From an uncultured Deferribacteres bacterium (GTDB lineage: Bacteria; Zhuqueibacterota; JdFR-76; DREG01), in contig CAJVYQ010000033.1 in the NCBI GenBank assembly GCA_913009825.1, forward strand, positions 1-56,318: 56,318 bases of DNA. Reading direction: 5' to 3'. Every line of letters starts with the position of its first letter. Positions within the stretch are counted from its first letter, which is position 1. The notes below the pieces were generated by a model. That model saw only the letters and a list, made by a program, of their open reading frames with translations. It was not told where the DNA came from and ran no database searches. Of the stretch, positions 31,006-56,318 are shown one piece after another. The position numbers were made by a program, and so were the translations under genes.

Positions 31006-31192
31006 TTGAAAATATGACAAAAATGTAACTTGCTTTTTGTTGATTCTTTATTATTTTAAAACTGCGCTGCCGTTTGCGTGAAATTATTTCTATCCACTGA
31101 ATATGCGGATCCATTATTTCATAAATTACAACCGTTCCATGAAATCCGTATTTTGAACCGAAATAATTCTTTTTATCCCCTGGGGGGGAATG

Positions 31193-35451: not shown

Positions 35452-35459
35452 GGTAAATC

Positions 35460-36434
35460 ATGAACGAACAACAAAAACAAAACAATTCGGTAGAATATAA
35501 GTCTGAAATACTTTTTTTATATGAGAGCGTCTATTCTGTACCCAACGGTGATCCTTTTACTGGAGAACAAAGATATGATGAAGAAACAAAAAAGATATTA
35601 GTTAGTGATGTACGCATAAAGCGTTTTATAAGGGATTACCTTGAAGAAAATGGAGAAGATATTTATGTAAGTGATAAAACTGGTGCTGGTAAAACAACAT
35701 CAGCAGGCGCAATAAAGAATCTTTATAATAGATTTAAGAAAAAAAATGAAGAGATCAAAGATGTAGAGAAAATTTTAAAAAAATGTATTGATGTACGTTT
35801 ATTTGGCGGTATTTCAACCCTAAAAGGGGCAGATGCAAAAATAGATGATAACACATCTCTCGAGAATACACACGTACAATATACAGGACCAGTACAGTTT
35901 GCACTTTTAAGTCCTTCATTAAATGCGGTTAATCTCAGGATTCATCAAAACACTTCTCACTTCCTTTCTGGTGAGGGGAAAGGGCAAGGAGCTATAGGAA
36001 CAACCACAATTGTACCCTATGCATTAGTCCAAATTCATGGATGGCTTAATCCCAAAGTTGCAGAGAATACAGGTTTAACAGAGGATGATGTAAAAAAAAT
36101 GTTAAAAGCACTTTGGTATGGAACTAGTGGCGATGGAAGTTCACACTCGCGTAGTAAAGCCGGTCAGAATTCTATCTTGTTATTGAATATCATCTACAAT
36201 GAACCCCAGAATAAATTATACGGAATTGATAAATTGATTAGATTAACAAATAAAAACGGAAAAAAAGATGAAGAATTAAGAGGAATGGATGATTTTGAAT
36301 TCGATTTTGCTGAATTAGTTAAAGTTGCTTCTTCTGAAAAGATAAAGGAAATAGAATACTATACGGAAATAAATGATTTGTCTAATAAACTAAGACAAGA
36401 AGAGTTTAAAAAAATTGAATTTTCTAATAAATAA
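35460..36434 (+). CDS. cas7: Type I-B Cas7 (Csh2) backbone subunit
   Basis: A 324-residue RAMP protein with the Csh2 hallmarks: LYESVYSVPNGDPFTGEQRYDEETKKILVSDVRIKRFIRDYL at the N-terminus, RLFGGI and the QYTGPVQFALLSPSLNAV segment. Multiple copies line the crRNA in the type I-B complex. It lies 8 bp after cas8b and 14 bp before cas5 and is AT-rich like its neighbours. Confidence 0.92.
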   Translation: MNEQQKQNNSVEYKSEILFLYESVYSVPNGDPFTGEQRYDEETKKILVSDVRIKRFIRDYLEENGEDIYVSDKTGAGKTTSAGAIKNLYNRFKKKNEEIKDVEKILKKCIDVRLFGGISTLKGADAKIDDNTSLENTHVQYTGPVQFALLSPSLNAVNLRIHQNTSHFLSGEGKGQGAIGTTTIVPYALVQIHGWLNPKVAENTGLTEDDVKKMLKALWYGTSGDGSSHSRSKAGQNSILLLNIIYNEPQNKLYGIDKLIRLTNKNGKKDEELRGMDDFEFDFAELVKVASSEKIKEIEYYTEINDLSNKLRQEEFKKIEFSNK

Positions 36435-36448
36435 AAGGAAGGCTAAAA

Positions 36449-37150
36449 GTGAAAGGTGCAATTTTAAATATAAGAGGAAATTGGGCCCATTTTAAAAAAC
36501 CGGAAACAAATAATAATCCTCTTACTCATGATTTTATTACTAAAACAGCCTTAGTAGGTATGATGGGCGCGGTTCTGGGAATTGAGAGAGAGCAGATGAA
36601 ATCTCAATTCCCTTTACTTACCAGAGGTTTATTGTATGGAGTACAAGTAGTAAATCCGGTTAAAAAAATATCATGGGGATTTACAAGTCGATCCGCCATT
36701 CATCCAACAGCTAAGGGTTCACCTAAATACTTTGAAATATTGAAAGAACCGGAATATCGGGTAGCAATAGCAGTAAATAGCGAAAATATTATTCCGTTAT
36801 TTGCTGATTTTATTGAATCAATTAATCTATCTCAAAGTATTTATGAGCCTGTTTTAGGATGGCATAATTGTCCGGCAGATATAAAAATTGAAGAAAAAGG
36901 AGAATTTGAAGAAAAACAAACTGGTCTATTTTGTGCAAAATGTTTTTTTTCCAACAAGCATAAACCGGACTTAATCAACACTTCCCATTTCAGAGTCGGA
37001 TTTGATAAAATACCAACATTTCAGAATGATGATTTTTGGAATATACCAGAAAATTATGTAGAGGTTATTTATCCTTCTGTTGAGGAATCAATAAGCATTG
37101 AAGGTGAATTCTATAACTTTATGAATAAGGAAAAGTGGTGGTTAATATAG
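36449..37150 (+). CDS. cas5: Type I-B Cas5
   Basis: A 233-residue Cas5 that caps the 5' tag of the crRNA in Cascade. The N-terminus ILNIRGNWAHFKKPETNNNPLTHDFITKTALVGMMGAVLGIER is characteristic of the Cas5h/b group. A GTG start is used, eight bases after AAGGAAGG. The end overlaps cas3 by 16 bp, indicating coupled translation. Confidence 0.92.
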   Translation: MKGAILNIRGNWAHFKKPETNNNPLTHDFITKTALVGMMGAVLGIEREQMKSQFPLLTRGLLYGVQVVNPVKKISWGFTSRSAIHPTAKGSPKYFEILKEPEYRVAIAVNSENIIPLFADFIESINLSQSIYEPVLGWHNCPADIKIEEKGEFEEKQTGLFCAKCFFSNKHKPDLINTSHFRVGFDKIPTFQNDDFWNIPENYVEVIYPSVEESISIEGEFYNFMNKEKWWLI

Positions 37151-39513
37151 AAAAATATGAGTCTCATCCAGGGCGACCACTTTTAGTACATGCAAAAAGG
37201 GTACGAGATAATGTTAAAGATATCACCGACCTACCAATAGTAGAAATTGCAGCTATATTACATGATATCGGTAAACTTAATCCTAATTTTCAAAACAAAT
37301 TAAATGGAGTAAAAAGCGGTTATTCCAGTCATGCCTATTTGTCTGCTTTTATTTTTTACCTTGTTTGTCAAACAGATAGACAATTTCTAAATAATGAATA
37401 TAACATTAAAGAAATTGAAGAAATCATTTCTGTAATAGCTATTGTTGCACATCACCATGGTAATCTTCCGAATTTCGATCATATATTAAATGAAAATGAA
37501 TGCGATAAATTGTTCGATTTCCTGAGAAAGCATCCTGATTTACCAGTGAATAACTTCGTGCAAAAATTTTTTACAATTGAAAATTTTGAAAAACACCTAT
37601 TTAATGAAAAAGCATGGGAAAAATTTAAAATATTAGGTTATGACTCTAAAGATTCATTAAACACATTTCTATCAACCCAGTTTGTTTTTGCGTCTCTTAT
37701 TGTTTCGGATAAAGCAGATGCCGGAAATTATAAAAAGGATGAAAATAATTGTCTACAATTTTTTTCGCAATACAACACTTCACTCGAAAGATATTTGAAT
37801 CAACTTGATCAGACTACAGAGTTAAATAAACTCAGAACCGAAATGCGGAAAAAGGCTATTAAAAATATTTTAAAAAAATACGTAGAAGGAAAACGTGTTT
37901 TTTCATTAACGGCGCCCACCGGCTCGGGGAAAACATTGATGTTACTGTCTCTTGCTGGAGAAATTTTAAAAAAAGAAAACGGTTTGCGCATAATATATGC
38001 TTTGCCATTTCTCTCAATTGTTGAGCAAGTAGAAAAAGAATGTCTGGAAATTTTTCCAGAATATGAAGCTGCTATTTGCCGAATTGACTCAAAGTCAGAG
38101 AATAAAGAATTCGCTAAATTGCAAAGCATGTTGGACGAAGACCCAAGTGCAATAAATAAAATTATTTCAGCGCAATTTGCTGAAGAAATTTTTGATTACC
38201 CATTCATTATCACAACCTTTGTGCGAGTATTTGAAACCCTGTTGAGTAATAAAAATGCTACACTGCTAAAATTGCCTAACTTTGCCAACGCGATTTTTCT
38301 GATTGATGAGATTCAGGCTCTTCCTCCGAGACTTTATGGTTTTTTTACGGCCATTATTGATGTTTTTTGCCGAAAGTATAAATCTTATGCAATCCTTTCT
38401 ACAGCTACGATGCCAAATTTTTCACTTCCGGAAAATAGCAACCATGATCTCAAGGGATTTTTCCCTGAGTATATTTTGCCATCTGAATTGTTGGAATTTG
38501 AATATTTTCAAAATCCATTATTCAATCGATATAAAATTAGTCGCCACACAGTACCAATAGAAATAGATAAACTGGCTGAAATGGTTAGTAAAGAGAAGGA
38601 ATCAGTACTTATTATTTTAAACACTATTCAGGATAGCAAAGATTTATATGCGGAGCTTGTTGCGGAAAACAATAATAACAATTGTATCCTACTTAATACA
38701 CATTTTACTATTGATGACAGAAAAAACAAGATTAATAAATGCAAACAATTTTTAGAAAAACGGAAAAAAGTTATTTTGATCTCTACACAGCTAATTGAAG
38801 CCGGTGTCGATATTGATTTTCCAATTGTTTATCGTGATTTCAGCCCGATTCCGAGTTTAGTTCAGTCAGCGGGCAGGTGTAATAGAAATGGCAAACTCTC
38901 CCGAAAAGGTCATGTCAAATTGATTGATCTGCAAAAGAATCACAATAGCCGCTCAAAATTAATTTATAAAGGAAAGGATGCTTATTTCCTAAATTATGCA
39001 TTTATTAATATTCGTGATAAAAATCTTCGCGAGCCAGATATGTTTGATTTGCAAAAAAAATTTTTCCAGGATATTAAAGAGAATACGCTTTTTGGTCACC
39101 ACAATGGTGTACAATTTGAGAATGGTGAAATAGATTTTATTCAAAGAATTAAAGAATTGAAATTCGCAGAAATAGGGAAATTCAAACTAATTGATGTAAA
39201 AGATTTTGGGGAAGAAATGAGCTTTTATATCCCACAAAACGATAATGATAAAATGTTCGAAAAACTTCAAAGGTTGTTGAAAGATTTACAACGTATTGGA
39301 TTTAATAACTTCAATGATCGAAAAATTAAATCGATTGAAATTAAAAATCAGATAAAAGCAATGTCAGGGAATATCCTTAGGGTCATTATCAAACATGACG
39401 AAGCTGCCCCTCCTGTGAGTAGTGAAATGTGTTATGGTTTATTCAAGTTATCAAGAGAATATTATGACGAACATACTGGTATTCAATTGAAAAGTGGCGG
39501 GCAAATTTTGTAA
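37135..39513 (+). CDS. cas3: Cas3 HD nuclease-helicase
   Basis: A 792-residue type I effector that unwinds and degrades target DNA after Cascade binding. The HD nuclease domain is N-terminal (HAKRV, then ILHDIGK with H43-D44, later VAHHHG). The helicase has Walker A (APTGSGKT, residues 260-267), the DEIQ box (391-394), SAT in ILSTATMP, and the C-terminal STQLIEAGVDIDF plus QSAGRCNRNG motif VI. All catalytic motifs look intact. It starts at a GTG with AAGGA just upstream, inside cas5. Confidence 0.93.
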   Translation: MVVNIEKYESHPGRPLLVHAKRVRDNVKDITDLPIVEIAAILHDIGKLNPNFQNKLNGVKSGYSSHAYLSAFIFYLVCQTDRQFLNNEYNIKEIEEIISVIAIVAHHHGNLPNFDHILNENECDKLFDFLRKHPDLPVNNFVQKFFTIENFEKHLFNEKAWEKFKILGYDSKDSLNTFLSTQFVFASLIVSDKADAGNYKKDENNCLQFFSQYNTSLERYLNQLDQTTELNKLRTEMRKKAIKNILKKYVEGKRVFSLTAPTGSGKTLMLLSLAGEILKKENGLRIIYALPFLSIVEQVEKECLEIFPEYEAAICRIDSKSENKEFAKLQSMLDEDPSAINKIISAQFAEEIFDYPFIITTFVRVFETLLSNKNATLLKLPNFANAIFLIDEIQALPPRLYGFFTAIIDVFCRKYKSYAILSTATMPNFSLPENSNHDLKGFFPEYILPSELLEFEYFQNPLFNRYKISRHTVPIEIDKLAEMVSKEKESVLIILNTIQDSKDLYAELVAENNNNNCILLNTHFTIDDRKNKINKCKQFLEKRKKVILISTQLIEAGVDIDFPIVYRDFSPIPSLVQSAGRCNRNGKLSRKGHVKLIDLQKNHNSRSKLIYKGKDAYFLNYAFINIRDKNLREPDMFDLQKKFFQDIKENTLFGHHNGVQFENGEIDFIQRIKELKFAEIGKFKLIDVKDFGEEMSFYIPQNDNDKMFEKLQRLLKDLQRIGFNNFNDRKIKSIEIKNQIKAMSGNILRVIIKHDEAAPPVSSEMCYGLFKLSREYYDEHTGIQLKSGGQIL

Positions 39514-40045: not shown

Positions 40046-40062
40046 TATTCATTGCAAAGAAA

Positions 40063-40095: not shown

Positions 40096-40136
40096 ATGCA
40101 GTTTCTATAAATTCCTAAACTTTTAAAGACAATATT

Positions 40137-41318: not shown

Positions 41319-41819
41319 ATGGAAACAGCACCCTCCCTCACAGGCGTGCAGATCAATTACTACTTCATCTGCAAGCGCAAACTGTGGTTGTTCAGCCACG
41401 GTATTCAGATGGAACAGGAATCCGACCGGGTGTTTCTGGGAAAACTGATGCACGAGGAAAGTTACGATCGCGAAAGCAAAGAAATATTTTTAGGAGGTCA
41501 AATCCGCCTGGATCGTATTTCACCGGACGGTGTGATTCATGAAACCAAAATGACCAATAAAATGGAAAAAGCGGATATCTGGCAGCTTAAGTATTATCTG
41601 TATTATCTCAAAAAAAACAACATCTGGCCGGTAACCGGGGAAATTGATTACCCTAAATTACGCAAAACTGAAAAAATTCAATTAAGCCAATCTGATTGTG
41701 AACAGTTGGATAAAATTGTCCGGGAAATTGGTGAAGTATTAAAAAAAGAACGCCCGCCGGAAATTCAAAAAATGTCTATTTGCAAAAAATGCGCTTATTT
41801 TGAATATTGTTGGGGGTGA
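41319..41819 (+). CDS. cas4: CRISPR-associated Cas4 nuclease
   Basis: A 166-residue RecB-type nuclease that trims prespacers and checks PAMs with Cas1-Cas2. The iron-sulfur cysteines are Cys18 (YYFICKRKLW), Cys155, Cys158 and Cys164 (SICKKCAYFEYC). The active-site HETK (IHETKMTNKMEKAD) and QLKYYLYYL are also visible. GAGAAGGA precedes the start. It belongs with cas1 and cas2 but is separated from cas1 by a RAYT and its palindromes. Confidence 0.93.
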   Translation: METAPSLTGVQINYYFICKRKLWLFSHGIQMEQESDRVFLGKLMHEESYDRESKEIFLGGQIRLDRISPDGVIHETKMTNKMEKADIWQLKYYLYYLKKNNIWPVTGEIDYPKLRKTEKIQLSQSDCEQLDKIVREIGEVLKKERPPEIQKMSICKKCAYFEYCWG

Positions 41820-41846
41820 GAAAAACCTATAAACTTTAACTACGCC

Positions 41847-41879
41847 AAACCTCAAAGGTCTTCAAGACCTTTGAGGTTT
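41847..41879. repeat. REP-A palindrome, copy 2
   Basis: A perfect 16+1+16 palindrome with arms AAACCTCAAAGGTCTT and AAGACCTTTGAGGTTT, between cas4 and the intact RAYT. It is followed by two more TTGAGGTTTA half-units (to about 41910). Confidence 0.85.
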
Positions 41880-42506: not shown

Positions 42507-42570
42507 CAGACCTCACTACACAGACCTCAAAGGTCTTAAAGACCTTTGAGGTCTGTGTAGTGAGGTCTGT
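42506..42570. repeat. Perfect 65-nt palindrome (REP-A) between RAYT and cas1
   Basis: A 32-bp arm from 42506 (starting ACAGACCTCACTACACAG), one central base at 42538, and the exact reverse complement to 42570. The inner part is the REP-A core; the outer part adds CAGACCTCACTACA. It begins in the RAYT stop codon and ends 14 bp before the cas1 start, so the cas1 leader would fold into or follow a very long hairpin. Confidence 0.9.
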
Positions 42571-42584
42571 CTACGGAGACAATT

Positions 42585-43676
42585 ATGAAACGAAACTATT
42601 ATTTGTTCAACGCCGGCCGGCTTTCCCGCAAGCAGAACACCATCTTTTTCAGGAAATATGACAAAGTTTCCGATGACGCGGTGGTTGCACGGTTCGAAGA
42701 AGAAGTGGAGAACGAACCGGAATTTACCGAAGGGGAGCCGGAAATCGAGTATAAGGTTTCCGAACAGAAAAAAGTGCTGCCGGTAGAGGATGTGGATTCG
42801 TTTTATATTTTCGGCGAAAGCGATTTTAACCGTAAGTTTCTCAATTTCTGCGGCAGTAAAGGGATACCCATTCATGTGTTCAACTATTACGGATTTTATT
42901 CCGGCACGTACTATCCGCGTGAATTTCTGAACAGCGGCGAACTGTTGCTGCGTCAGGTGCGGACTTTTGATGACAACGAATTGCGCATGGAGATTGCCCG
43001 TGCATTTATTTCCGGCGCCTCCGGCAACATTCTTAAAAATTTGCAGTATTACAACAGCCGCGGCAAGGATACGTCCCGGTTTATCGCAGAAATTTCCGGC
43101 CTGCGGGAACGGATCAAAACAGTAAAAAGGATTGATGAACTGATGGGCATTGAGGGAAATATCCGCCATTGGTATTACGAAGCCTGGCCGCTGATCATCG
43201 ACCGAACCATCGAATTTAACAAACGGGTGAAACATCCGCCGGATAATATGATCAATTCCCTGATCAGTTTTGCCAACACGCTGGTTTATACGACCTGTCT
43301 TTCGGAAATTTACCGCACGCAGTTAAGTCCGCTGATTTCTTATTTGCACGAACCGGGCACCAAGCGGTTCTCGCTGTCGCTGGATCTGGCGGAAATCTTT
43401 AAGCCGCTGCTTGCCGACCGGGCTATTTTCACGCTTTTGAACCGCAAGCAGATCACCGAAAAACATTTTACCACCAAAGGTAAAATCTGCTGGCTCAACG
43501 AAGAGGGGAAGAAAATATTTGTGCGTGATTTTGACGAACGGCTGGCCACCACATTGAAGCATCGGAAACTGGGGCGAAATGTAAGCTACCGCCGGCTGAT
43601 CCGTCTGGAATGTTACAAATTGATTAAGCATCTGCTGGGGCAGGAAAAATATAGTGCATTTCAAATTTGGTGGTAA
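42585..43676 (+). CDS. cas1: CRISPR integrase Cas1
   Basis: A 363-residue Cas1 of the type I-B kind that, with Cas2, inserts spacers next to the leader. The metal-binding catalytic residues are visible: Glu190 (GIEGNIRHWYYEAW), His255 (YLHEPGTKRFSL) and Asp267/Glu270 (DLAEIFKP). The N-terminal beta domain carries an extra acidic stretch of about 30 residues (residues 30-68, EEEVENEPEFTEGEPEIE) before the usual PVEDVDSFYIFGE. It is separated from cas2 by the whole type III-A module. Confidence 0.94.
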   Translation: MKRNYYLFNAGRLSRKQNTIFFRKYDKVSDDAVVARFEEEVENEPEFTEGEPEIEYKVSEQKKVLPVEDVDSFYIFGESDFNRKFLNFCGSKGIPIHVFNYYGFYSGTYYPREFLNSGELLLRQVRTFDDNELRMEIARAFISGASGNILKNLQYYNSRGKDTSRFIAEISGLRERIKTVKRIDELMGIEGNIRHWYYEAWPLIIDRTIEFNKRVKHPPDNMINSLISFANTLVYTTCLSEIYRTQLSPLISYLHEPGTKRFSLSLDLAEIFKPLLADRAIFTLLNRKQITEKHFTTKGKICWLNEEGKKIFVRDFDERLATTLKHRKLGRNVSYRRLIRLECYKLIKHLLGQEKYSAFQIWW

Positions 43677-43811
43677 GGATGAAATGTCATTCAGTAGGAA
43701 TCTTGTTCGTTTATTGCCTGGATTTGACAAGATTCCTCCCCTTGGGAGGCGGATAGGCTGAATGACAGGAAAAACGCTCAATGTAGGTAATAAAAAATAT
43801 GAGGTAAAATT
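43677..43811. mobile_element. Degenerate MITE family A copy between cas1 and cas10
   Basis: The interior (ATGTCATTCAGTAGGAATCT, then GAATGACAGG) and the right end (CGCTCAATGTAGG, ending 43787) match family A copies at 25138 and 50881. The left terminal repeat is missing or eroded, and no target duplication is visible. It lies directly after cas1, and the rest of the gap is the cas10 leader. Confidence 0.6.
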
Positions 43812-46154
43812 ATGGAAAAGAGTGTAGTATTTTTTGGTGCTTTACTTCACGATATCGGGAAGTTCTATGAACGGAGTAAGCAATATCACCTAAAAAAAGA
43901 CAAATCAGTTGACAGATATTCTCATGCAGAATATTCGGCTTTTGTTTTAAAAACTTTGCATGGCCAAATTGATTTTTTTAAGCAATTGCCGGAAACAATT
44001 GTTGAAATAGCCAAGACCCATCATGCTCCCCGCACGCCTGAGGGGAAAATCGTCCAATTAACTGACTGGTTATCTTCCGGTGAACGTATGGAAGATCAAT
44101 CGGTGACGGATTATTATGTGAATATCGCTCTGATTTCTGTTTTTTCACAAATTTATCCTGCCGGGAATAGTGTGGAACCGGAAAAACAATGGGGCTGCGA
44201 CTTAGTTCCTTTATCATTCGATTCGGTTTTCCCTTCAATAGAAGCCTGTGCCGGAAAAGATGCTTATCAAGCGCTGGTTGATACTTTCAATTCCCGTTTG
44301 GTTGGGATTAACTCAACAGAAGAATTGCTGGCGCTTATGGAAAAATATTTGTCGCTGGTACCGGCGCAAACTACCCGGTTTAGAGCAGATATATCTTTGT
44401 ATGATCACATGCGTGGAACGGCTGCCATCGCGCTTTGTCTGTATCATCAAATGCAGAACGGGGCGCTGGATGAGCAACAAATAGACCGGATAAGAGAAAG
44501 TTTGAATAAACAGCCTGTGGAGGATAGAAGCTTCATTTTAATCCATGCCGACTTATCCGGCATTCAGAAATTTGTGTTTAATGTGACCTCCAAAGGTGCT
44601 GCAAAGAGTTTGAAGGGAAGGAGTACTTATTTGATGCTGTTAATGGAATCCATCGCTCACTTCTTCGTTAATGAACTTGATCTGGAACCAACAAATATTT
44701 TATACAACGGAGGCGGAAATTTTTATCTATTAGCTCCGGCGGTATTTGAAGAGAAAATTCAAAATTTACGAAAAACCGTCAATCGCCGATTATTTCAAAT
44801 CCACGGCGGCGAATTGTTTTGCAATATCGGGTATTGTCAGTTCTCGGCATATCATTTTATTCAGCAATTTCAGGATATTTGGACGCAGGCAACCGCTAAT
44901 ACCGCTATATTAAAACAGCAGAAAATCTCAGAGATATGGGAAGATGAATATGATCTGTTATTCCAACCTGCCGGGGAAATCCATACCCACGCCTGCCGGA
45001 TTTGTCATTCTACCGAAAATGTGGTAATGGATGATGAAGATATTGAGATTTGCTCTTTTTGCCAATCCTTTAAAAAACTGGCCAAAGATATAAAAGATTG
45101 CCGCTATATTGGTATGAGTGATATAGAGGTGGAAGAGATCTCATTTGGAACGGTGACAGATTGGCAAGCGGCGCTGGCGGTTTTTGGCCGTGAATATTCC
45201 TTTTACAAAGAATGGCCGAAGCGGACTGAAGAAAAGGTATATGCTTTGAACAATTTTGATGATAAGAACACGCCTCTGTTTCGGTTTGGCGCCCTGCCTC
45301 TTGCCCTGGAACCGGATTTTGATATTCTGGCGGAAAATAAAAGACTGGCCTTTTTGAAACTGGATGTAGATAACCTAGGGGAAATTTTTAAGAAAGGGCT
45401 GCAACCGGCATCCATCTCCCGCGTGGCGGTGTTAAGCCGCATGCTGCGGTTGTTCTTTGAAGGCTATTTGCCGTACATGATAGACTCAAACAAAAAATAT
45501 CGCGAAGATATTTACATTGTCTTCTCCGGCGGCGACGATTCTTTTTTAATCGGAAAGCCGCAAACCATGGTTAAATTTGCCGGCGAGTTGCGCCAAAAAT
45601 TCGCTGAGTTTACAGCAGGCAATCCGAAGGTCGGTTTTTCGGCTGCCATCGGTATCTTCGGATACAAGCATCCGGTTATCCAGGCGGCAGAAACAAGCGA
45701 AGAGTGGCTGGAACAGGCAAAAAAATTCCGCACGCCGGAAGAAATGGAAAAGGATGCTCCGCCTTTAAAGAATAGAATTTTTTTGATGAATGAGGTGTTC
45801 AATTGGCTGGAGTTAGACTATATACTCGAAATCCGGGACCTGCTGACATCCATTATCGGAAAAACCGGAAAGCGCAGCCTGCTGCGCAAAGTCATCAATT
45901 CCACCCGCGGATTTAAACCGTTGCTGGAACAAGCAAAGGAAGGCCGCTTAAATATGCAAAAGGTTTGGCGGTTACGTTATTATCTGCGGGATATTAAAGA
46001 AGAAAGCGTACAAAGTGAAAAGAAAAAATTAATTAAAATTTACGAAAACATGTGGCTGCATAATTTTTACGGGAAAAATGGCCGAACCATCACTAATCAC
46101 CAGATCATTACCGCAGCCGCTAAATTAGCTGACCTAAAAACAAGGGAGAATTAA
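43812..46154 (+). CDS. cas10: Type III-A Cas10 (Csm1)
   Basis: The 780-residue signature subunit of the Csm complex. The N-terminal HD nuclease is intact (LLHDIGKF with H13-D14, SHAEYSAF, THHAP). A zinc ribbon follows at Cys395/398/414/417, then the second Palm domain with GGDD at residues 573-576 (VFSGGDDSFLIG). Both single-strand DNase and cyclic-oligoadenylate synthesis are therefore expected on target RNA binding. A downstream CARF-HEPN gene fits this. It heads a tight operon, 3 bp before csm2. Confidence 0.94.
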   Translation: MEKSVVFFGALLHDIGKFYERSKQYHLKKDKSVDRYSHAEYSAFVLKTLHGQIDFFKQLPETIVEIAKTHHAPRTPEGKIVQLTDWLSSGERMEDQSVTDYYVNIALISVFSQIYPAGNSVEPEKQWGCDLVPLSFDSVFPSIEACAGKDAYQALVDTFNSRLVGINSTEELLALMEKYLSLVPAQTTRFRADISLYDHMRGTAAIALCLYHQMQNGALDEQQIDRIRESLNKQPVEDRSFILIHADLSGIQKFVFNVTSKGAAKSLKGRSTYLMLLMESIAHFFVNELDLEPTNILYNGGGNFYLLAPAVFEEKIQNLRKTVNRRLFQIHGGELFCNIGYCQFSAYHFIQQFQDIWTQATANTAILKQQKISEIWEDEYDLLFQPAGEIHTHACRICHSTENVVMDDEDIEICSFCQSFKKLAKDIKDCRYIGMSDIEVEEISFGTVTDWQAALAVFGREYSFYKEWPKRTEEKVYALNNFDDKNTPLFRFGALPLALEPDFDILAENKRLAFLKLDVDNLGEIFKKGLQPASISRVAVLSRMLRLFFEGYLPYMIDSNKKYREDIYIVFSGGDDSFLIGKPQTMVKFAGELRQKFAEFTAGNPKVGFSAAIGIFGYKHPVIQAAETSEEWLEQAKKFRTPEEMEKDAPPLKNRIFLMNEVFNWLELDYILEIRDLLTSIIGKTGKRSLLRKVINSTRGFKPLLEQAKEGRLNMQKVWRLRYYLRDIKEESVQSEKKKLIKIYENMWLHNFYGKNGRTITNHQIITAAAKLADLKTREN

Positions 46155-46157
46155 ACC

Positions 46158-46604
46158 ATGAAACAAAACCAATATTCACAAAAGCATTCTGAAAAATTTG
46201 AGAAGAAAAAAGATAATGCTTGGGAAAACATGAATAAAATATGGCAAGAACTTGAACCGATAATTCTTAAAGTTAAGCAATTGGATAGAAATGGTTACAA
46301 TAATTTTTGTTTCCATGTACAAGAATACGTTGACAATCCTAAATTTAAAGGGACGCATGGTGTTAAAAATATTACGACCTCAAAAATTCGCAATATATTT
46401 TCGATCTTAAAAAAAATGAAAGCACCAGAAGAAGTGGTTCGTTTACGGCCGTCATTAGCTTACCTCTCTGGAAGAGATAAAAAAACGAAGTTTTTTATGA
46501 ATCACTTGGACAAGGTTATCAAAAATATCGAGACAAAAGAACAATTAGAAAGTTTTCAACAATTTTTTGAAGCCATTATTTGTTACGCAAAGGAAAACGA
46601 TTAA
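46158..46604 (+). CDS. csm2: Type III-A Csm2 small subunit
   Basis: A 148-residue helical protein with the Csm2 signature NITTSKIRNIFSILKKMKAPEE and LRPSLAYLSGRDKK. It forms the inner filament of the Csm complex along the crRNA-target duplex. It is AT-rich compared with cas10 and csm3. It lies 3 bp after cas10 and 16 bp before csm3. Confidence 0.9.
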   Translation: MKQNQYSQKHSEKFEKKKDNAWENMNKIWQELEPIILKVKQLDRNGYNNFCFHVQEYVDNPKFKGTHGVKNITTSKIRNIFSILKKMKAPEEVVRLRPSLAYLSGRDKKTKFFMNHLDKVIKNIETKEQLESFQQFFEAIICYAKEND

Positions 46605-46620
46605 TAGAGGAGAACATAAA

Positions 46621-47397
46621 ATGAAACTGATGGGAAAAATCTTTATTGACGGCATCATCGAACTGAAAACCGGACTGCACATCGGCGGTTCGTCCACTGC
46701 GCTGGATATTGGCGGTATCGACAGCAATGTGATTAAAAATGCACAGGGGATTCCCTATATTCCCGGCTCCTCCCTGAAAGGGAAGATGCGTTCATTAATG
46801 GAATTAAAATATTCTGCCTATACGCAGCGTACCGGAAAAGTTGACTCAGGTATGGAAAAAGCAGCAGATTGTAATGCCGACATTCAGCGCCTTTTCGGTT
46901 CTGTTGCCAAAGAAGCGGAAACCAAAACCCGTATCATTGTGCGCGACGCCTTTATCAGTGAAGAAACTTTACATGAAATGCAAAATAAGGAGAACGGCGA
47001 AGGGGGATTTACCAACCTGGAACTGGATTATACCGAAGGTAAATGGGAAAATACGTTGGACCGGCTTACATCTGCCGCCAATCCGCGGCAATTGGAGCGG
47101 GTTCCCGCCGGCGCGAAATTCAATTTTTCGTTAGTATTCAATATTTTTGGCGATGATGCCGCCCTGTTGAACATGGTGTTCGAAGCCCTCCGGTTGGTGC
47201 AGGACGATTATCTGGGCGGTTCAGGCAGCCGCGGTTACGGGCAGGTGGTTTTTGAAAATATTCTGTTAAGCTATAAAAGCGCAGAAAATTATAAGAAACA
47301 AGAATCGGCACAGGAAATTCGCCTGTTTCCTACTCTCGATGAGGTATCGCTCAATAATTTGCCAATTGAATGGGGAGAAAATCATGCACAGGATTAA
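46621..47397 (+). CDS. csm3: Type III-A Csm3 (Cas7-like target RNase)
   Basis: A 258-residue RAMP protein with GLHIGGSSTALDIGGIDSNVIK, IPGSSLKGKMRS and GGSGSRGYGQV. Asp34 (GGID) lines up with the catalytic aspartate known for Csm3 (Asp33 in the Streptococcus thermophilus protein), so target RNA cleavage every 6 nt is expected. ATG 46621 follows AGGAGA; longer readings into csm2 are not supported. The 3' end overlaps csm4 by 14 bp. Confidence 0.94.
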   Translation: MKLMGKIFIDGIIELKTGLHIGGSSTALDIGGIDSNVIKNAQGIPYIPGSSLKGKMRSLMELKYSAYTQRTGKVDSGMEKAADCNADIQRLFGSVAKEAETKTRIIVRDAFISEETLHEMQNKENGEGGFTNLELDYTEGKWENTLDRLTSAANPRQLERVPAGAKFNFSLVFNIFGDDAALLNMVFEALRLVQDDYLGGSGSRGYGQVVFENILLSYKSAENYKKQESAQEIRLFPTLDEVSLNNLPIEWGENHAQD

Positions 47398-48400
47398 ACT
47401 CTATCCGCCGCGGAACAACGCCTTTGTCCTGCCGGATATTCAGGTCAGCTCCGCCACTCTTTTCGGGGCGTTAACTAACAATTACGTGCTGCTGCATGGG
47501 GCGGAGCGCTTTCCGGAACTTTTGCAGTATATCCATGAAGGCCTTCGGCTATCCTGTATTTTCCCGGCTTTGCAAATTGCAGAGAAAGAAATCTTTTTTC
47601 TGCCGAAACCTTTTATCGCCTACCAGGCGGACCGTCCCGAAAATGAAGATGAATATCCCGACAAAAAAGCGCTTAAAAAATTACGCTGGTTTTCCGAAGG
47701 ATTGTTGAAACGGTTAAGAACGCATATCAAAGAAAAAGATGGACGGATAGTCCATACGCTGAATCTTGAGGATGAATCCAATTTAATCATCGGCGGACAA
47801 TTTGCCCTGACGGCATCTGAAATAGGGATGGAAAAGCCGCCTGCGAGGTTGAAGGAACTAAACCTCTTCTCTAAAAACGTCCTGCCGCGGGCCGGCGTGC
47901 CCAGATTCGGTGGTGCTGCCGAACCTTTTCATCAAAGAGAAATTTCACTGCCATGCAGAATTATTAACGGAAAGTCTTTTCGGTTATTTTTTTACTATCT
48001 GGAGAAAAATACACCGGACAGCACAAAGTGGCAGGCTGTGCGGGAGCTGTTTGCGGAAGAAGGCATTGGCGGGCTGCGCAGCCTGGGAAAGGGTTATTTC
48101 GAAAAAACCGAGGTAGAAGAACCGGAATGGCACCTCGCAACCGGACGGCAAATGTTGTTATCGGATACCATCCCGCAAAAACAGGAATTGTCATCGATCT
48201 TATCTTACGATTTTCGGCGTGACGACGGTTTTATTACTTTCGGGCAGGCCACGGAATATAAAAAAAGCGCCTTATATTTGATAAAAGCCGGCGCTGTTTT
48301 AAAGGATCGAATAAACGGAAGGATGGTTGAAGAAAAAATAGGCGGCCGTACGCTTTACCGTTACGGTCTTGCCATGTCGTGTTCTTTAAACGGAGTATGA
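47384..48400 (+). CDS. csm4: Type III-A Csm4 (Cas5-like)
   Basis: A 338-residue RAMP protein that binds the crRNA 5' tag and contacts Cas10. The N-terminus RIKLYPPRNNAFVLPDIQVSSATLFGALTNNYVLL and the internal GGLRSLGKGYFE glycine loop fit Csm4. The start is the ATG at 47384, within csm3 and after GGGGAG. It is followed 1 bp later by csm5. Confidence 0.9.
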   Translation: MHRIKLYPPRNNAFVLPDIQVSSATLFGALTNNYVLLHGAERFPELLQYIHEGLRLSCIFPALQIAEKEIFFLPKPFIAYQADRPENEDEYPDKKALKKLRWFSEGLLKRLRTHIKEKDGRIVHTLNLEDESNLIIGGQFALTASEIGMEKPPARLKELNLFSKNVLPRAGVPRFGGAAEPFHQREISLPCRIINGKSFRLFFYYLEKNTPDSTKWQAVRELFAEEGIGGLRSLGKGYFEKTEVEEPEWHLATGRQMLLSDTIPQKQELSSILSYDFRRDDGFITFGQATEYKKSALYLIKAGAVLKDRINGRMVEEKIGGRTLYRYGLAMSCSLNGV

Positions 48401-48401
48401 T

Positions 48402-49529
48402 ATGAAAACGATGGAATTGAAAATTAAAGTTAAAACACCGTTGCATATTGGTGATCATGACAGTCGCAAATGGTCGGCGTTTAGTGATTACATTGCAAAG
48501 GACGGGAAAATACAATTCGTTGATGCACGCAGACTGAACAATTTACTGGCCGGCGATGATAAATTGATGGATGCCTATCTGCAAATGATTCGCCGCGGAC
48601 AGGGAAGGGGCAGCCGCGAACAGTCTCTGGGCGCTTTTCTTAGCGCTCAAAACATTCCGGCTGAAGAAGTAATCTCTACACTCAGTCTGCAGGTCAGCGG
48701 CATAATCAGCGGCCGGGAAATAAAGCCTTTTATTGCCCGGAATGGTAAGCCATTTATTCCCGGCAGTAGTTTAAAAGGCGCTATTCGTTCCACGATGGCT
48801 TATGATTATGTGCAGCATCATCCGGAATCCAAACGACGTATTCTGAACGATATTCTTAAAAAAAACCAAAAACCTGATTTCAGAAAATTTGAACAGGAAA
48901 TATTCGGCAGCAGTCCGCATACCGATCTTCTCCGTTTTCTGCATGCAGGGGATTCATCTGACTTCGACCCTGATGACCGCTTTGTGCAAACAACCTGGAC
49001 CTATCATATTAAAAAAGGAGTTGCGGAGATACCCATTAGCAAAGAATGCCTGAAACCGGACGCGGAAGCATTCTTTCGTATTAAAAAATTAGCGCTAAAT
49101 TCTAAGGTTCACGAGGGCGGTTTCCGCACCCGGTTTGAGAAACTAAACGGCAAAGAGGATTTGTTTCATATCGTCAATGCCTTTGCCCTGCGGTTTGCCG
49201 AGAGGGAAATTGAGGAGTTAAATGGAAAACCCGGTTTAGAAAAGGTGGTGAATTTTTATCAGAAATTGATTTCTGAAATAACGGCGGAAAACGGGAAAAA
49301 GGCTTTTTTGATGCTGGGCGCCGGAACCGGCATCTTTACCAAAACCATTTTACTTATCTTCTCTTCTACAGAAATTGAACGTATCCGTGAATCAATGAAA
49401 GAAACAAAAGCAAGCCGCAATTTTGGCTGGGTAAAGGGCAAACGCAGCGAGCTTTTTCCGGTAACCCGCCATGTTTATATGTCCGGGGACAAAGTGACCG
49501 GTATTTTAGGGTGGGTGGAAATTTATTAA
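48402..49529 (+). CDS. csm5: Type III-A Csm5 (Cas7-like)
   Basis: A 375-residue RAMP protein at the 3' end of the Csm filament, involved in crRNA maturation. KVKTPLHIGDHDSRKWSAFSDYI, FIPGSSLKGAIRSTMAYDYV and RNFGWVKGKRSEL are typical of Csm5. It starts immediately after the csm4 stop and ends 15 bp before the csm6-like gene. Confidence 0.9.
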   Translation: MKTMELKIKVKTPLHIGDHDSRKWSAFSDYIAKDGKIQFVDARRLNNLLAGDDKLMDAYLQMIRRGQGRGSREQSLGAFLSAQNIPAEEVISTLSLQVSGIISGREIKPFIARNGKPFIPGSSLKGAIRSTMAYDYVQHHPESKRRILNDILKKNQKPDFRKFEQEIFGSSPHTDLLRFLHAGDSSDFDPDDRFVQTTWTYHIKKGVAEIPISKECLKPDAEAFFRIKKLALNSKVHEGGFRTRFEKLNGKEDLFHIVNAFALRFAEREIEELNGKPGLEKVVNFYQKLISEITAENGKKAFLMLGAGTGIFTKTILLIFSSTEIERIRESMKETKASRNFGWVKGKRSELFPVTRHVYMSGDKVTGILGWVEIY

Positions 49530-49544
49530 ATGAAAGGATAAAAA

Positions 49545-50885
49545 ATGAATTTATTTTTTGCAAATATTGGTTCAAGGGATATCTTGTTAAACGGCAATAA
49601 AATTATTCCCTCAAGAACAGAAGGAGAAAAAATTTACAACTCGTTACAGGAGTACAAATCCGAAATTCAATTTCCTATACTTAACCCGGCTCTGAAATAT
49701 ATTTTTGATCAAGATGTGAATAATATAGATCAAATGGTCATTTTTGTTACCGATCAGTCCGACAAGCAGTTTAAATCCGGGGATACAATTTATTTTGGTA
49801 AAATTATTAAACAGATTCTACCGAAAATATTCAAAAGTAAAATAAAGAAAATAAGTCTTCAGGTTTTGCAGGACGAAGTAAATTATTATGATTCGATGTT
49901 TAGTTATTACCGGAATTATTTTAATGAAATACAATACGCCGATGTTGATAAGGTTTTTGTATTAGCCACCGGCGGTATTCCGGCCTGTAATATGGGGTTG
50001 ATTTTTCACAGTATTGATTATTATCAGGATAAAGTGATTTCCTTATATGTCAGTGAAAAGACCCGAAAAATTATAAAAATAAATATGGGGAAGCAGCTAT
50101 TTGATCATTTTTATAAAAAGGCGATGCAGAATTATTTAGCTTCCTACGATTATCCGGCAATCACCACATTTAAACAGAGTGATAAAAATATAGCGTTTCT
50201 GGCACAGGCAGCCCAACATCGATTAAATTTTAATTTCGATACCGCTTTACAATGCCTGCATAACTATCGCTCCCTGTCTGGAAATGCAGGCTTCACCACT
50301 TTAAAGCTGCATTTGGAGAACCTGTTAAACGGAGATAGAAGTTCATTAATAATTGAATTATTAAATAATATTCGGGTTAAAATCAACAGAAAAGAATATG
50401 TGGATGTAGTAGGCCGGCTGTTCAGACTGGAAGAAGCCGTTTTAGGTCACTTTGTTGAACAGGATCTGAAAATTTCCGTTAACCGGGATAAAAAAGAGGG
50501 ATTTAAAAAGTTTGAACAAGGGGTAAAAAAATATCCTGCCCTGGAAAACAGCTTAAAAAAAATAAGAATAAGTGGGGAACCTTTAGATTATAAAACGCCA
50601 AATCGCGAGACGCTCCGCGCTATTTTGCAATTTTTACACAAAGAAAATCCCTGCAATGATAAGTATCGGCAAATAGCCGATCTATGCAACCGGTTAAAAC
50701 CATTTTCCGAACTACGAAATAATAGTATTTTGGCGCACGGATTTAAAGGTGTTTCGTCGAAAGATTTTGAAAATCTGAATCCATCTCAACTTTTGAGCGG
50801 CATGGAGTTTCTATTTGAATTCGATATTAAAACCCTTGGTTTTGAAAAAATTAATATCAGAATAAAAGAAATATTATTGACCTAA
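49545..50885 (+). CDS. csm6: CARF-HEPN ribonuclease (Csm6-like)
   Basis: A 446-residue ancillary RNase of type III systems. The N-terminal CARF domain has the ligand-loop motif VFVLATGGIPACNM (137-150), expected to bind cyclic oligoadenylate made by Cas10. The C-terminal HEPN domain has the RNase motif R(x6)H at Arg391-His398 (RNNSILAH). It is more divergent than the Csm proteins and is AT-rich. Its last residue and TAA stop come from the left end of an inserted MITE (50881). Without the insertion and its ATTGA duplication the frame would continue NKTIKQK and stop, so about eight residues were replaced. Confidence 0.85.
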   Translation: MNLFFANIGSRDILLNGNKIIPSRTEGEKIYNSLQEYKSEIQFPILNPALKYIFDQDVNNIDQMVIFVTDQSDKQFKSGDTIYFGKIIKQILPKIFKSKIKKISLQVLQDEVNYYDSMFSYYRNYFNEIQYADVDKVFVLATGGIPACNMGLIFHSIDYYQDKVISLYVSEKTRKIIKINMGKQLFDHFYKKAMQNYLASYDYPAITTFKQSDKNIAFLAQAAQHRLNFNFDTALQCLHNYRSLSGNAGFTTLKLHLENLLNGDRSSLIIELLNNIRVKINRKEYVDVVGRLFRLEEAVLGHFVEQDLKISVNRDKKEGFKKFEQGVKKYPALENSLKKIRISGEPLDYKTPNRETLRAILQFLHKENPCNDKYRQIADLCNRLKPFSELRNNSILAHGFKGVSSKDFENLNPSQLLSGMEFLFEFDIKTLGFEKINIRIKEILLT

Positions 50886-51010
50886 ATTGAGCGATTCTTA
50901 TGTCATTCCGTAGGAATCTTATTGGTTTAGTACAAAGGATTAAAAAGATTCTTACAGAATGACAAAACTCTTTGGGTGGTTATCGCAAGCTAAGAATCGC
51001 TCAATTTAGG
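50881..51010. mobile_element. MITE family A, copy 4, at the csm6-cas2 junction
   Basis: A 130-bp element with perfect 20-bp terminal inverted repeats (CCTAAATTGAGCGATTCTTA at 50881-50900, inverse at 50991-51010), flanked by ATTGA on both sides (50876-50880 and 51011-51015). This is the best preserved copy in the window. It overlaps the csm6-like stop codon and lies between that gene and cas2. Confidence 0.9.
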
Positions 51011-51101
51011 ATTGAATAAAACCATAAAACAAAAATGAAACGATCATTAGGCACAACAACGGAATTACAAACCCTTTAAAATTTGATGATAAGAGATTGC
51101 A

Positions 51102-51365
51102 ATGTACGTTATTTTGGTGTATGATGTGGAGGAGAAGCGGGTAGTCAAAGCGCTGAAATTGTGCCGTCAGTATTTAAACTGGATTCAGAACAGTGTTTTT
51201 GAAGGGGAACTAACGGAAGGGAAATTAAAAGAGCTGAAGATAAAGTTGAAAAAAATACTTGACATTGAAAAGGATTCTGTGTTAATTTTTAAAATGAGAG
51301 AAAAGAAGGCGTTTAAAAAAGAGGTGATCGGCCGGGAGAAAAATCCTCTGGACACTTTTATCTGA
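51102..51365 (+). CDS. cas2: CRISPR integrase subunit Cas2
   Basis: An 87-residue ferredoxin-fold protein with the Cas2 start MYVILVYDVEEKRVVKALKLCRQYL, including the first-strand Asp, then WIQNSVFEGELTEGKLKELK. It bridges two Cas1 dimers during spacer integration. It is placed 108 bp before the first repeat, the normal position next to the leader, but 7.4 kb from cas1. Confidence 0.94.
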   Translation: MYVILVYDVEEKRVVKALKLCRQYLNWIQNSVFEGELTEGKLKELKIKLKKILDIEKDSVLIFKMREKKAFKKEVIGREKNPLDTFI

Positions 51366-51473
51366 ACCCCGCAGTCGTCAACCTTGTGCTTACGGCAGCA
51401 GGATTGGTGGTTGACAGACATTTTTCAGTTATTTTACCCGCTAAATAACTGTTTTTTAAGGCCGTTTTTGCGG
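51366..51473 (+). promoter_or_regulatory. CRISPR leader
   Basis: A 108-bp non-coding stretch between the cas2 stop and the first repeat, AT-rich toward the repeat (AACTGTTTTTTAAGGCCG). Its position next to cas2 and upstream of repeats ending in ATTGAAAC indicates that array transcription and spacer addition occur from this side. Confidence 0.7.
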
Positions 51474-54400
51474 GTTTTAATCGAACTATGGTAGGATTGA
51501 AACGCAGTTGTCGTGCAAATTACTGTTGAGGATAAAGAGTTTTAATCGAACTATGGTAGGATTGAAACTTATGAATGGCAACAAAAAAAATGTAGGGAAT
51601 TTGTTTTAATCGAACTATGGTAGGATTGAAACGAGAACAAACAAAACATCGAAAAAACTGGAGAAAATGTTTTAATCGAACTATGGTAGGATTGAAACTT
51701 TAGAGAAAGTGCTAAAAAAATTCTTGAATCTAAAGGTTTTAATCGAACTATGGTAGGATTGAAACTGACGAGACGGCAAAAATTGTTAATCTGCTGAACA
51801 GTTTTAATCGAACTATGGTAGGATTGAAACATAGTCATAATAGTATTTGCGGGACCGGAAAAAGGTTTTAATCGAACTATGGTAGGATTGAAACCTATCT
51901 ATTTATAACGGTAGCATCAGTGGTGAAAAGTTTTAATCGAACTATGGTAGGATTGAAACGACGTCATATTGGAGAGTTGTAAACATAGTAGGATGTTTTA
52001 ATCGAACTATGGTAGGATTGAAACATCTATACGCTTTTGGGTAAGCATTAACCAGTCACGGTTTTAATCGAACTATGGTAGGATTGAAACAACTTCACCG
52101 GCTGGAATAATTGTATCTGCACAAAGTTTTAATCGAACTATGGTAGGATTGAAACGAATACCAACAATGGCCATTATTAAATTTCTGAGAGTTTTAATCG
52201 AACTATGGTAGGATTGAAACTTGGATGAAATTAAAAAGCATTTGAATAGATTAAGTTTTAATCGAACTATGGTAGGATTGAAACTTTTACCGCGATCGAT
52301 CGCGTAAAATCTGAGCTCAGGTTTTAATCGAACTATGGTAGGATTGAAACATTTTAGAGAGCCGCTTATGACACACGCACTCACACGTTTTAATCGAACT
52401 ATGGTAGGATTGAAACTAAAATGGTTTTGGGTGGGGCTGCCGGGGGGCTCTTGTTTTAATCGAACTATGGTAGGATTGAAACATCGTCTGCTTTCAATAG
52501 CAAGTGCTCGATAGGTGTTTTAATCGAACTATGGTAGGATTGAAACCCGATAATTACAAGAGCAAAAAGAGAAACCGAAAAGTTTTAATCGAACTATGGT
52601 AGGATTGAAACCCGGTTGACTTCACATAAAATATTTCATAGCCAGTTCCAGTTTTAATCGAACTATGGTAGGATTGAAACTATTTTTAACGTAACAATTT
52701 TGGTGCTTGGATCGATGAGTTTTAATCGAACTATGGTAGGATTGAAACTCCTGTCTCATCTCTCAAACCTATCCTCGTGTGCAGTTTTAATCGAACTATG
52801 GTAGGATTGAAACTCAAGTTTTTTGATGTTATTAATTATAGGAAAATAGTTTTAATCGAACTATGGTAGGATTGAAACAAAATACGACCCAACACAGCCT
52901 TGTTTTGTATTCTATTTTGTTTTAATCGAACTATGGTAGGATTGAAACCGGCATCACAGGAACAATCGAATCTTCTTCTAATTCGTTTTAATCGAACTAT
53001 GGTAGGATTGAAACATTAATTTGTGTTCACAAAAAGCCGCACCGCCGGGGGTTTTAATCGAACTATGGTAGGATTGAAACTTTGAAGTTTCTTTAATAAC
53101 CGGATTAAACCAATGTTTTAATCGAACTATGGTAGGATTGAAACTTGGCAAGGCCGGTGAAATCGGATTAATGCAAGTTTCTGTTTTAATCGAACTATGG
53201 TAGGATTGAAACGTAAGCAAGATCGATCACGTATGTTTCCTTTTCAGTTTTAATCGAACTATGGTAGGATTGAAACACAATCATTAGATAATCATTATAC
53301 AATGATTACTGTTTTAATCGAACTATGGTAGGATTGAAACAGCGGCATCCGGACTAACCGGAATGTCAATAAATCGTTTTAATCGAACTATGGTAGGATT
53401 GAAACTCTTTCGTGACCGGCTGGTCGATTAAAGAGCTTTCGTTTTAATCGAACTATGGTAGGATTGAAACGTAAGCAAGATCGATAAGATAAACTTCCTT
53501 ATCAGTTTTAATCGAACTATGGTAGGATTGAAACTTTTTAGCATATCAGTGACAAATCCTTTCTTCCAGGTTTTAATCGAACTATGGTAGGATTGAAACT
53601 CGGGATCGAATACAAGTTAAATATTGACTTGTTTTGTTTTAATCGAACTATGGTAGGATTGAAACTTTACAAAAGGATTGGGTCGATATTGGGAAAAAGT
53701 TTTAATCGAACTATGGTAGGATTGAAACTGAGTAACATAGACTTGAGCTTGAGCCAGTCGTTGGTTTTAATCGAACTATGGTAGGATTGAAACGGTGGAA
53801 CATGGCGCAGAGGGAACTCTATGCTTTAGTTTTAATCGAACTATGGTAGGATTGAAACTATGATGCGGGATATATTCCCTAAGCAGTTTTTTGAGTTTTA
53901 ATCGAACTATGGTAGGATTGAAACTGACTTGCCAGGCTTGCCTGCAGCCATCCGAACTCGTTTTAATCGAACTATGGTAGGATTGAAACCAAAAACAATC
54001 CGTCAGGCTGGCAAACATCGGCCTGCGTTTTAATCGAACTATGGTAGGATTGAAACTTTTGTTTTAGCAGTTGGTCTTTCACCTGTTGCGGTTTTAATCG
54101 AACTATGGTAGGATTGAAACTCTTAATTCTCATGTTACTTCAAACTTCTTTATCCGTTTTAATCGAACTATGGTAGGATTGAAACTAAACGTATAGTCTT
54201 CGCTTACGCCTAATTTTTCCAGTTTTAATCGAACTATGGTAGGATTGAAACGAATTCTCTGTCCTACGCAGCCTTAAGAACGGCTGAGGTTTTAATCGAA
54301 CTATGGTAGGATTGAAACGGATTTTTGTTCTGGCTACGTTTCTTTTGAGCAAGGGTTTTAATCGAACTATGGTAGGATTGAAACTTTATCAGTTTGATAC

Positions 54401-56162
54401 AATTTCTATATTTTGAGACGGTTTTAATCGAACTATGGTAGGATTGAAACTCGCTCACGCAATGCATGTGCAGGTCTTCATAGTCTGAGTTTTAATCGAA
54501 CTATGGTAGGATTGAAACTTTATACTCCTGTCGTGGCCACACGGCAGAATTTAAGTTTTAATCGAACTATGGTAGGATTGAAACTCGATGGTCCCGGCTG
54601 AGGGCCCGCCGGCGGCCCCGGTTTTAATCGAACTATGGTAGGATTGAAACGTATATGTGGGAGTGGCAAAAAATTCAAGCGGTGTTGCGTTTTAATCGAA
54701 CTATGGTAGGATTGAAACGGAGAGCATCTGCTTTCTTTGCACGCTCTGCGACTTGTTTTAATCGAACTATGGTAGGATTGAAACAGGCTTCGTATTGATC
54801 TCATACATGGCGTTAAATGTTTTAATCGAACTATGGTAGGATTGAAACCCGGGCGAATGGACCCGGGCATTTATGCGTTGGGGGCGAGTTTTAATCGAAC
54901 TATGGTAGGATTGAAACAATTGCATTTTAGGTGCGTACGTGGCAGTTGGGAAGTGTTTTAATCGAACTATGGTAGGATTGAAACTAACAGGGTTGACCAT
55001 CATAAGTATAAGTCATCCGACCGTTTTAATCGAACTATGGTAGGATTGAAACTTGTGATTGAGAAGCAATGACCTGGATAGCTGAATAGTTTTAATCGAA
55101 CTATGGTAGGATTGAAACAATAATACAACCGTATCAATTTGGAGATGAGTTTAAGTTTTAATCGAACTATGGTAGGATTGAAACTTTTGCCTCCATTTTA
55201 TTGTGTCCCTTGCAATCAGTTTTAATCGAACTATGGTAGGATTGAAACGGACTCGAACCTGCATAAAAGATGTCAATCTTTTTAGTTTTAATCGAACTAT
55301 GGTAGGATTGAAACTAATAAATACTTTAAAGAACTCAAATCTTTTTGAAGTTTTAATCGAACTATGGTAGGATTGAAACGAAAAAGTCCTTCACTCCCAG
55401 CCTTCCACCAAGGAAATGTTTTAATCGAACTATGGTAGGATTGAAACGATTCAGATTGGAGTATAGAAAAGTGTGATTATTAGTTTTAATCGAACTATGG
55501 TAGGATTGAAACTATCTTCGGCTTCTATTGTTAAGGCATATTTTATGTTTTAATCGAACTATGGTAGGATTGAAACTAGCTGGCGTACTAGTAGCTATAC
55601 TGTAATCATTGTTTTAATCGAACTATGGTAGGATTGAAACAGTATTAGTAGAGCTTGTAGTAGAGTTTGTAGGAACAGTTTTAATCGAACTATGGTAGGA
55701 TTGAAACAGTATTACGACTGTTACAGTGTCTCACTTGCGGCCAGTTTTAATCGAACTATGGTAGGATTGAAACGCGTAAAGTCACTGTCCTCTTGATTTA
55801 CGTGCATAAGTTTTAATCGAACTATGGTAGGATTGAAACATTGGTTTCCTTTTCTGTTACTAAGTGTAATATATGTTTTAATCGAACTATGGTAGGATTG
55901 AAACGAGAAAAACTGGCTTCATCACTTCAAGAAAAAATAGTTTTAATCGAACTATGGTAGGATTGAAACATTCTATCGCAGCAGTTGGACTACTTCAGCC
56001 TCTGTTTTAATCGAACTATGGTAGGATTGAAACCGTGATTTTAGAGCATCGTTGGAACGATTGAAACGTTTTAATCGAACTATGGTAGGATTGAAACAGC
56101 TATCCGCAAACCTACACAGACAAGATTCTACAGTTTTAATCGAACTATGGTAGGATTGAAAC
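51474..56162 (+). CRISPR. CRISPR array, 72 repeats and 71 spacers
   Basis: My count gives 72 copies of a 30-bp repeat (starts GTTTTAATCG, centre AACTATGGTA, ends GGATTGAAAC), with the first at 51474-51503 and the last at 56133-56162. Spacers are about 33-40 nt, mostly 34-37. I noticed no substitutions among repeats, including the distal one. The ATTGAAAC end matches the 8-nt 5' handle used by types I-B and III-A after Cas6 cleavage, and the leader-cas2 side is at the left. Open frames within this stretch are translations of the repeat and are not genes. Confidence 0.98.
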
Positions 56163-56318
56163 TAAAAATTCTGGCAAGAAGGGACGCAGAGATAAGTGGA
56201 CCCCAATGTCAAGACAAAAATTAACTAATTTTAAGGTGGTGTTGTAGTAGTAGTTTTTCTTTTTTCTTTTTTTGCTTCTTTTTGTCTTTTTTCTTTTTGT
56301 TGATATGTGGATAACACT
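56163..56318. other. Array trailer, possible start of an insertion sequence
   Basis: After the last repeat there is a short non-repeat segment. At about 56197 a GTGGACCCCAATGTCAAGAC stretch followed by AATTTTAAGGTGG resembles the end of an IS3-like element, with a transposase frame that would lie beyond the window. A pyrimidine-rich tract (TTTTTCTTTTTTC) follows. This is only a visual impression. Confidence 0.25.

What the first reader, a model, noticed from the sequence alone, without database searches (positions are those of the whole stretch)
42585..51365. cas1 and cas2 are split by a complete type III-A module with related MITEs at both junctions
Seen: the order is cas4, RAYT, cas1, MITE fragment, cas10-csm2-csm3-csm4-csm5-csm6-like, intact MITE, cas2, leader, array. 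Known: in type I-B loci cas4-cas1-cas2 are normally contiguous. Inference: a III-A cassette entered between cas1 and cas2 of an existing I-B locus, and family-A MITE copies (43677-43811 and 50881-51010) mark both edges. The right-hand MITE has its own target duplication inside the csm6-like gene, so it landed after the cassette or near its edge. The left one is eroded. The pattern could reflect recombination between dispersed MITEs or repeated insertion at a hotspot.
Basis: partly seen in the sequence, partly recalled or inferred. Interest (0 to 1): 0.85.

Follow-up and report, generated by a model that had tools for sequence, protein, structure and literature searches.

The report
CRISPR locus fusion leaves second cas1
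A bacterial immune locus that seems to have had a second system slotted between two partner genes is better read as two CRISPR loci joined end to end, because a tiny fossil of a second cas1 gene still sits next to cas2; the MITEs (small mobile DNA elements) at the edges look incidental.

Summary
The order is real: type I-B genes, cas4, RAYT, cas1, complete type III-A module (cas10-csm2-csm3-csm4-csm5-csm6), cas2, leader, array with 72 exact repeats. The separation is derived: in 48 related loci with both genes on the contig, cas1 and cas2 are neighbours; only this one is split by a module. (1) Directly upstream of cas2 lies a relic of another cas1: its last 16 codons (51045-51092, both terminal Trp codons now TGA), and probably its first 9 bases (51035-51043) overlapping the original csm6 stop. 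No false match of that strength occurs in 2.57 million control positions or 10,000 shuffles. So the layout is cas1 - III-A - relic cas1 - cas2. Type III-A loci in the same phylum run cas10-csm-cas1-cas2 (6 of 6 visible). I infer that a III-A locus with its own cas1 was joined behind the I-B cas1, probably by recombination at cas1, and the redundant cas1 decayed. (2) The right MITE is a young transposition (98-99% identical to four other copies, 5-bp duplication) into the last codons of csm6; the left one is old. The genome has dozens of copies. They do not mark the junction.

The parts
31190..32017 (+). cas6-like gene at the head of the I-B locus
   Evidence: ORF; name from the sequence and position, not profile-tested
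33334..39513 (+). type I-B effector genes: cas8 (33334-35451), cas7/csh2 (35460-36434), cas5 (36449-37150), cas3 (37135-39513)
   Evidence: NCBIfam hits for cas7, cas5, cas3; cas8 has no NCBIfam hit but is 41% identical to the gene in the same place in G030
41319..41819 (+). cas4
   Evidence: TIGR00372, 79.2 bits
41928..42506 (+). REP-associated tyrosine transposase (RAYT) between cas4 and cas1
   Evidence: NF047646 59.9 bits, below its cut-off of 80
42585..43676 (+). intact cas1, the only one found in the genome
   Evidence: TIGR03641 440.7 bits; single Cas1 in 5.1 Mb
43684..43788 (+). eroded MITE, left terminal repeat missing
   Evidence: core matches the family; best other copy 79%
43812..50885 (+). 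type III-A module cas10-csm2-csm3-csm4-csm5-csm6
   Evidence: NCBIfam hits; GGDD in Cas10 and R-x6-H in Csm6 read directly
50876..51015 (+). intact MITE 50881-51010 with 5-bp target duplication ATTGA at 50876-50880 and 51011-51015; it replaces the last 7 codons of csm6 with one
   Evidence: same 5-bp duplication pattern in the other alignable copies; restored csm6 is 452 instead of 446 aa
51035..51043 (+). probable 5' end of the cas1 relic, ATGAAACGA, overlapping the original csm6 stop TGA
   Evidence: identical to the first 9 nt of the intact cas1; short, so weaker evidence than the tail
51045..51092 (+). 3' end of the cas1 relic: last 16 codons, reading H*AQQRNYKPFKI***
   Evidence: profile score 13.07, next best in window -2.0; 0 of 10,000 shuffles; no false hit in 2.57 million positions
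51102..51365 (+). cas2
   Evidence: TIGR01573 54.3 bits; only one in the genome at E <= 1e-15
51366..51473 (+). leader
   Evidence: shares motifs with leaders of relatives, e.g. GACAGACATTTTT with G004
51474..56318 (+). CRISPR array, 72 exact repeats and 71 different spacers, running to the contig end region

Best explanation
This is a composite I-B/III-A locus made by joining two CRISPR loci that each had a cas1. Upstream part: I-B effector genes-cas4-(RAYT)-cas1. Downstream part: cas10-csm2-csm3-csm4-csm5-csm6-cas1-cas2-leader-array, the usual III-A order in this phylum. The joining put cas1 on both sides of the III-A module; a single crossover in cas1 between the resident locus and a circular III-A-bearing molecule would do this in one step. 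The redundant second cas1 was then lost by an internal deletion of about 1 kb that left its tail and probably its first bases. A MITE later jumped into the last codons of csm6. The two effector systems now share one array, one intact cas1 and one cas2. Shown: anatomy, relic, contiguity in relatives, MITE duplication. Inferred: the recombination step and the shared use of the array.
For: Relic of a cas1 3' end directly upstream of cas2, where relatives have the end of cas1; 9-nt cas1 start overlapping the restored csm6 stop; G073 has csm6, 6 nt, cas1, cas2; 6 of 6 III-A loci of the phylum with a visible downstream side carry cas1, and cas2 where the contig reaches it, after the csm genes; cas1-cas2 contiguous in all 48 other loci where both are visible; I-B effectors match G030, which has cas4-RAYT-cas1-cas2-array and a repeat 28/30 identical; single Cas1 and single Cas2 in the genome.
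Against: No phylogenetic conflict between cas1 and cas2 shows two donors: both are closest or tied closest to G004 (71% and 75%), but Cas2 is only 87 aa and its tree is unresolved. No breakpoint is visible inside cas1. No trace of a lost cas2 or array between cas1 and cas10. The relic tail is too short to assign to a lineage.
Confidence: 0.72

Rival explanations
1. The locus first had the order I-B genes-cas4-III-A-cas1-cas2, and a copy of cas1 was later placed upstream of cas10, beside cas4; the old copy decayed. Same anatomy, different history.
For: Explains the relic and the csm6-cas1-cas2 remnant equally well.
Against: The relic tail is no closer to the intact cas1 tail (27/48, hand count sequences) than to those of G004 (31/48) or G005 (30/48), so it does not look like a recent copy; G030 shows that cas4-RAYT-cas1-cas2 without III-A exists with this I-B type.
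Confidence: 0.14
2. The III-A cassette, without adaptation genes, inserted between cas1 and cas2, and the insertion event duplicated the end of cas1.
For: Cas1, Cas2 and leader all resemble G004, which has the uninterrupted pair.
Against: The cas1 start-like 9 nt coupled to the csm6 stop points to a whole cas1 after csm6; the relic tail differs strongly from the intact tail.
Confidence: 0.08
3. Recombination between dispersed MITEs brought the cassette in, and the MITEs mark its edges.
For: A MITE lies at each end of the module.
Against: The right copy has a matching 5-bp target duplication and sits inside csm6, so it arrived by transposition after csm6 was in place; the left copy differs (79% to its best match); 91 matches to a strict core pattern and at least 40 scored full or near-full copies in the genome, three in this 56-kb window.
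Confidence: 0.02
4. The contig is an assembly chimera joined at a repeated MITE.
For: Fragmented assembly of 123 contigs; the right MITE is 98-99% identical to four other copies.
Against: The 5-bp duplication joins the two flanks of the right MITE, and csm6 continues in frame across it to a stop that overlaps the cas1 relic; the left MITE has no near-identical copy.
Confidence: 0.04

Closest known systems
Type I-B locus of G030 (same phylum)
   Same: Same effector subtype (cas8 41%, cas3 52%), cas4-RAYT-cas1-cas2 order, repeat 28/30 identical
   Different: cas1 and cas2 adjacent; no type III-A module
Type III-A locus of G073 (same phylum)
   Same: cas10-csm2-csm3-csm4-csm5-csm6-cas1-cas2-array; Cas10 39% identical over the match
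   Different: cas1 intact after csm6; upstream side not visible, the contig starts at cas10
Exchange of adaptation and effector modules between CRISPR loci, with type III loci especially prone (PMC6452270, PMC4390879)
   Same: Effector modules of different types combined with one adaptation set and array
   Different: Those texts describe the exchange from phylogenies and gene order; here a gene relic appears to record the intermediate

Membership tests
Type III-A CRISPR-Cas | Cas10/Csm1 with Csm2, Csm3, Csm4, Csm5 | tested here: met
   All above NCBIfam cut-offs
Type III-A CRISPR-Cas | Csm6-type CARF-HEPN effector | tested here: inconclusive
   54.6 bits against a cut-off of 150; HEPN motif RNNSILAH read directly
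Type I-B CRISPR-Cas | Cas7/Csh2, Cas5, Cas3 and Cas8 of the I-B kind | tested here: met
   Csh2 211 bits over cut-off, Cas3 core and HD over cut-off, Cas5h 76 bits below its cut-off of 97 but generic Cas5 over cut-off; Cas8 without NCBIfam hit
Adaptation module cas4-cas1-cas2 | cas1 and cas2 adjacent | tested here: not met
   7.4 kb apart here, adjacent in 48 other loci; a cas1 relic adjoins cas2
MITE family of this genome | About 20-bp terminal inverted repeats and 5-bp target duplication | tested here: met
   Right copy and the other alignable full copies; the left copy lacks its left repeat

The most novel reading that the evidence does not exclude
The gene fossil records fusion of a I-B and a III-A locus by homologous recombination at cas1, which would make cas1 itself the crossover point by which type III effector modules are spliced into type I loci.
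Probability: 0.35. Interest if true: 0.6.

Novelty: new variant of a known kind. Interest (0 to 1): 0.42.

Why it matters
Module shuffling between CRISPR types is well accepted, but the physical steps are rarely visible. A cas1 relic between csm6 and cas2 shows that the III-A module came with, or came to lie before, its own cas1, and offers a search pattern (short cas1 tails upstream of cas2 or of effector genes) to find other fusions. It also warns that apparent insertions between adaptation genes can be fusions followed by loss of one copy.

Tried and rejected
A relict repeat between cas1 and cas10: none above background. A breakpoint inside cas1 by segment identity: none clear. Cas2 tree to find its donor: unresolved. 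nhmmer and six-frame profile searches put the relic second after the true cas1 end but with weak E-values (0.75 and 0.12), since the tail is short; the position-weight scan with large controls was used instead. Plasmid search for the III-A module: only distant Cas10 (about 23-26%) on Thermus, Limosilactobacillus and others. Papers on cas1 and cas2 split by a type III module: none found in the held library.

Full report
What is there. The window carries a I-B locus (cas6-like gene, cas8, cas7, cas5, cas3), two non-cas genes (a SWIM-type protein and an ERCC4-type nuclease), a RAYT fragment, cas4, a RAYT, cas1, a complete III-A module, cas2, leader and array. The genome has one Cas1, one Cas2 of this kind and one Cas10 at E <= 1e-30, so the split pair is the only adaptation pair detected. 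The array has 72 exact repeats with 71 different spacers.

The split is derived. In the phylum (82 genomes held) the same 11 genomes hold this Cas1 and this Cas2, and in the 10 others the two are neighbours. In 38 named loci (Jettenia and Brocadia, Clostridia, Anoxybacillus, Thermoflexus and others) with both genes on the contig they are neighbours too. The closest pair, in G004 of the same order, is separated by 7 nt between the cas1 stop and the cas2 start. The largest gap elsewhere, about 590 nt in G081, holds relict CRISPR repeats.

The cas1 relic. The 63 nt between the original csm6 stop and cas2 contain, in register, the last 16 codons of a cas1: CAT TAG GCA CAA CAA CGG AAT TAC AAA CCC TTT AAA ATT TGA TGA TAA, against for example HITGIEPYKPFKIWW* in G005; the last 27 nt differ from G005 only at the two Trp codons. 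A weight matrix from the ends of 46 related cas1 genes scores 13.07 here; the true cas1 end scores 49.8 and the next best of about 112,000 positions in the window scores -2.0. In 2.57 million positions of fetched DNA every score of that size is a true cas1 end (66 of 66), and none of 10,000 dinucleotide shuffles reaches it. Removing the MITE and one copy of its duplication restores a csm6 of 452 codons whose TGA overlaps an ATG that begins ATGAAACGA, the first 9 nt of the intact cas1. This is the layout csm6-cas1-cas2 of G073 with about 1 kb of cas1 deleted. The comparison was chosen after seeing the sequence; the controls and the position make chance very unlikely for the tail, less so for the 9-nt start.

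History. All III-A loci of the phylum whose downstream side is visible (G073, G037, G014, G009, G061, G026) have cas10, csm genes, then cas1, with cas2 next where the contig reaches it. The I-B side resembles G030, where cas4 is followed by a RAYT, then cas1-cas2-array. The present locus is the two joined, with cas1 as the common gene. A crossover in cas1 explains it in one step but is inferred; Cas2 and leader data do not decide which copy of cas2 survived.

The MITEs. The full element has 20-bp terminal repeats and a 5-bp duplication, seen at the right-hand copy and the other alignable copies. The right copy is 98-99% identical to four copies elsewhere, so it is young; it replaced the last seven codons of csm6 by one. 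The left copy's best match is 79% over about 100 bases and its left repeat is gone. A strict core pattern alone gives 91 matches in 5.1 Mb, some of them both strands of one copy. Two copies in two of the larger gaps of this gene cluster need no special explanation.

How it works. Cas10 has a GGDD motif and the Csm6-like protein an R-x6-H motif (read), so cyclic oligoadenylate signalling is plausible. One array and one adaptation pair would serve both effectors; a single adaptation module and Cas6 serving type I-A and III-B complexes is described for Sulfolobus islandicus (PMC4390879). This use is inferred here, not tested.

Limits. The window is a contig of a fragmented assembly without reads; the sampled phylum is small; the nearest Cas10 is only 39% identical, so the source of the module is unknown.

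Noticed in passing
L091 (G081:C89), about 650-750, minus strand: Two relict CRISPR repeats (28/30 and 22/30 matches, 66 nt apart) lie between cas1 and cas2, with short tandem stretches on both sides; a second case where the pair is separated, here by remains of an array.
   Followed up: partly
window 41928-42506; L076 about 13000-13550; L078 3638-4408: RAYT-like transposase genes sit between cas4 and cas1 in three genomes of the phylum.
   Followed up: no
window 41845-41879, 42122-42156, 42520-42554, 33217-33249: Palindromes of the AGACCTCAAAGGT type around the RAYT, possibly its REP targets.
   Followed up: no
window 39515-40778: A SWIM-type gene and a Hef/XPF-like ERCC4 nuclease gene lie between cas3 and cas4, with similar hairpins at 39515-39554 and 40057-40096.
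   Followed up: no
G000:C7 3345-9780: A cluster of MITE cores of the same family, often read on both strands, within about 6 kb.
   Followed up: no
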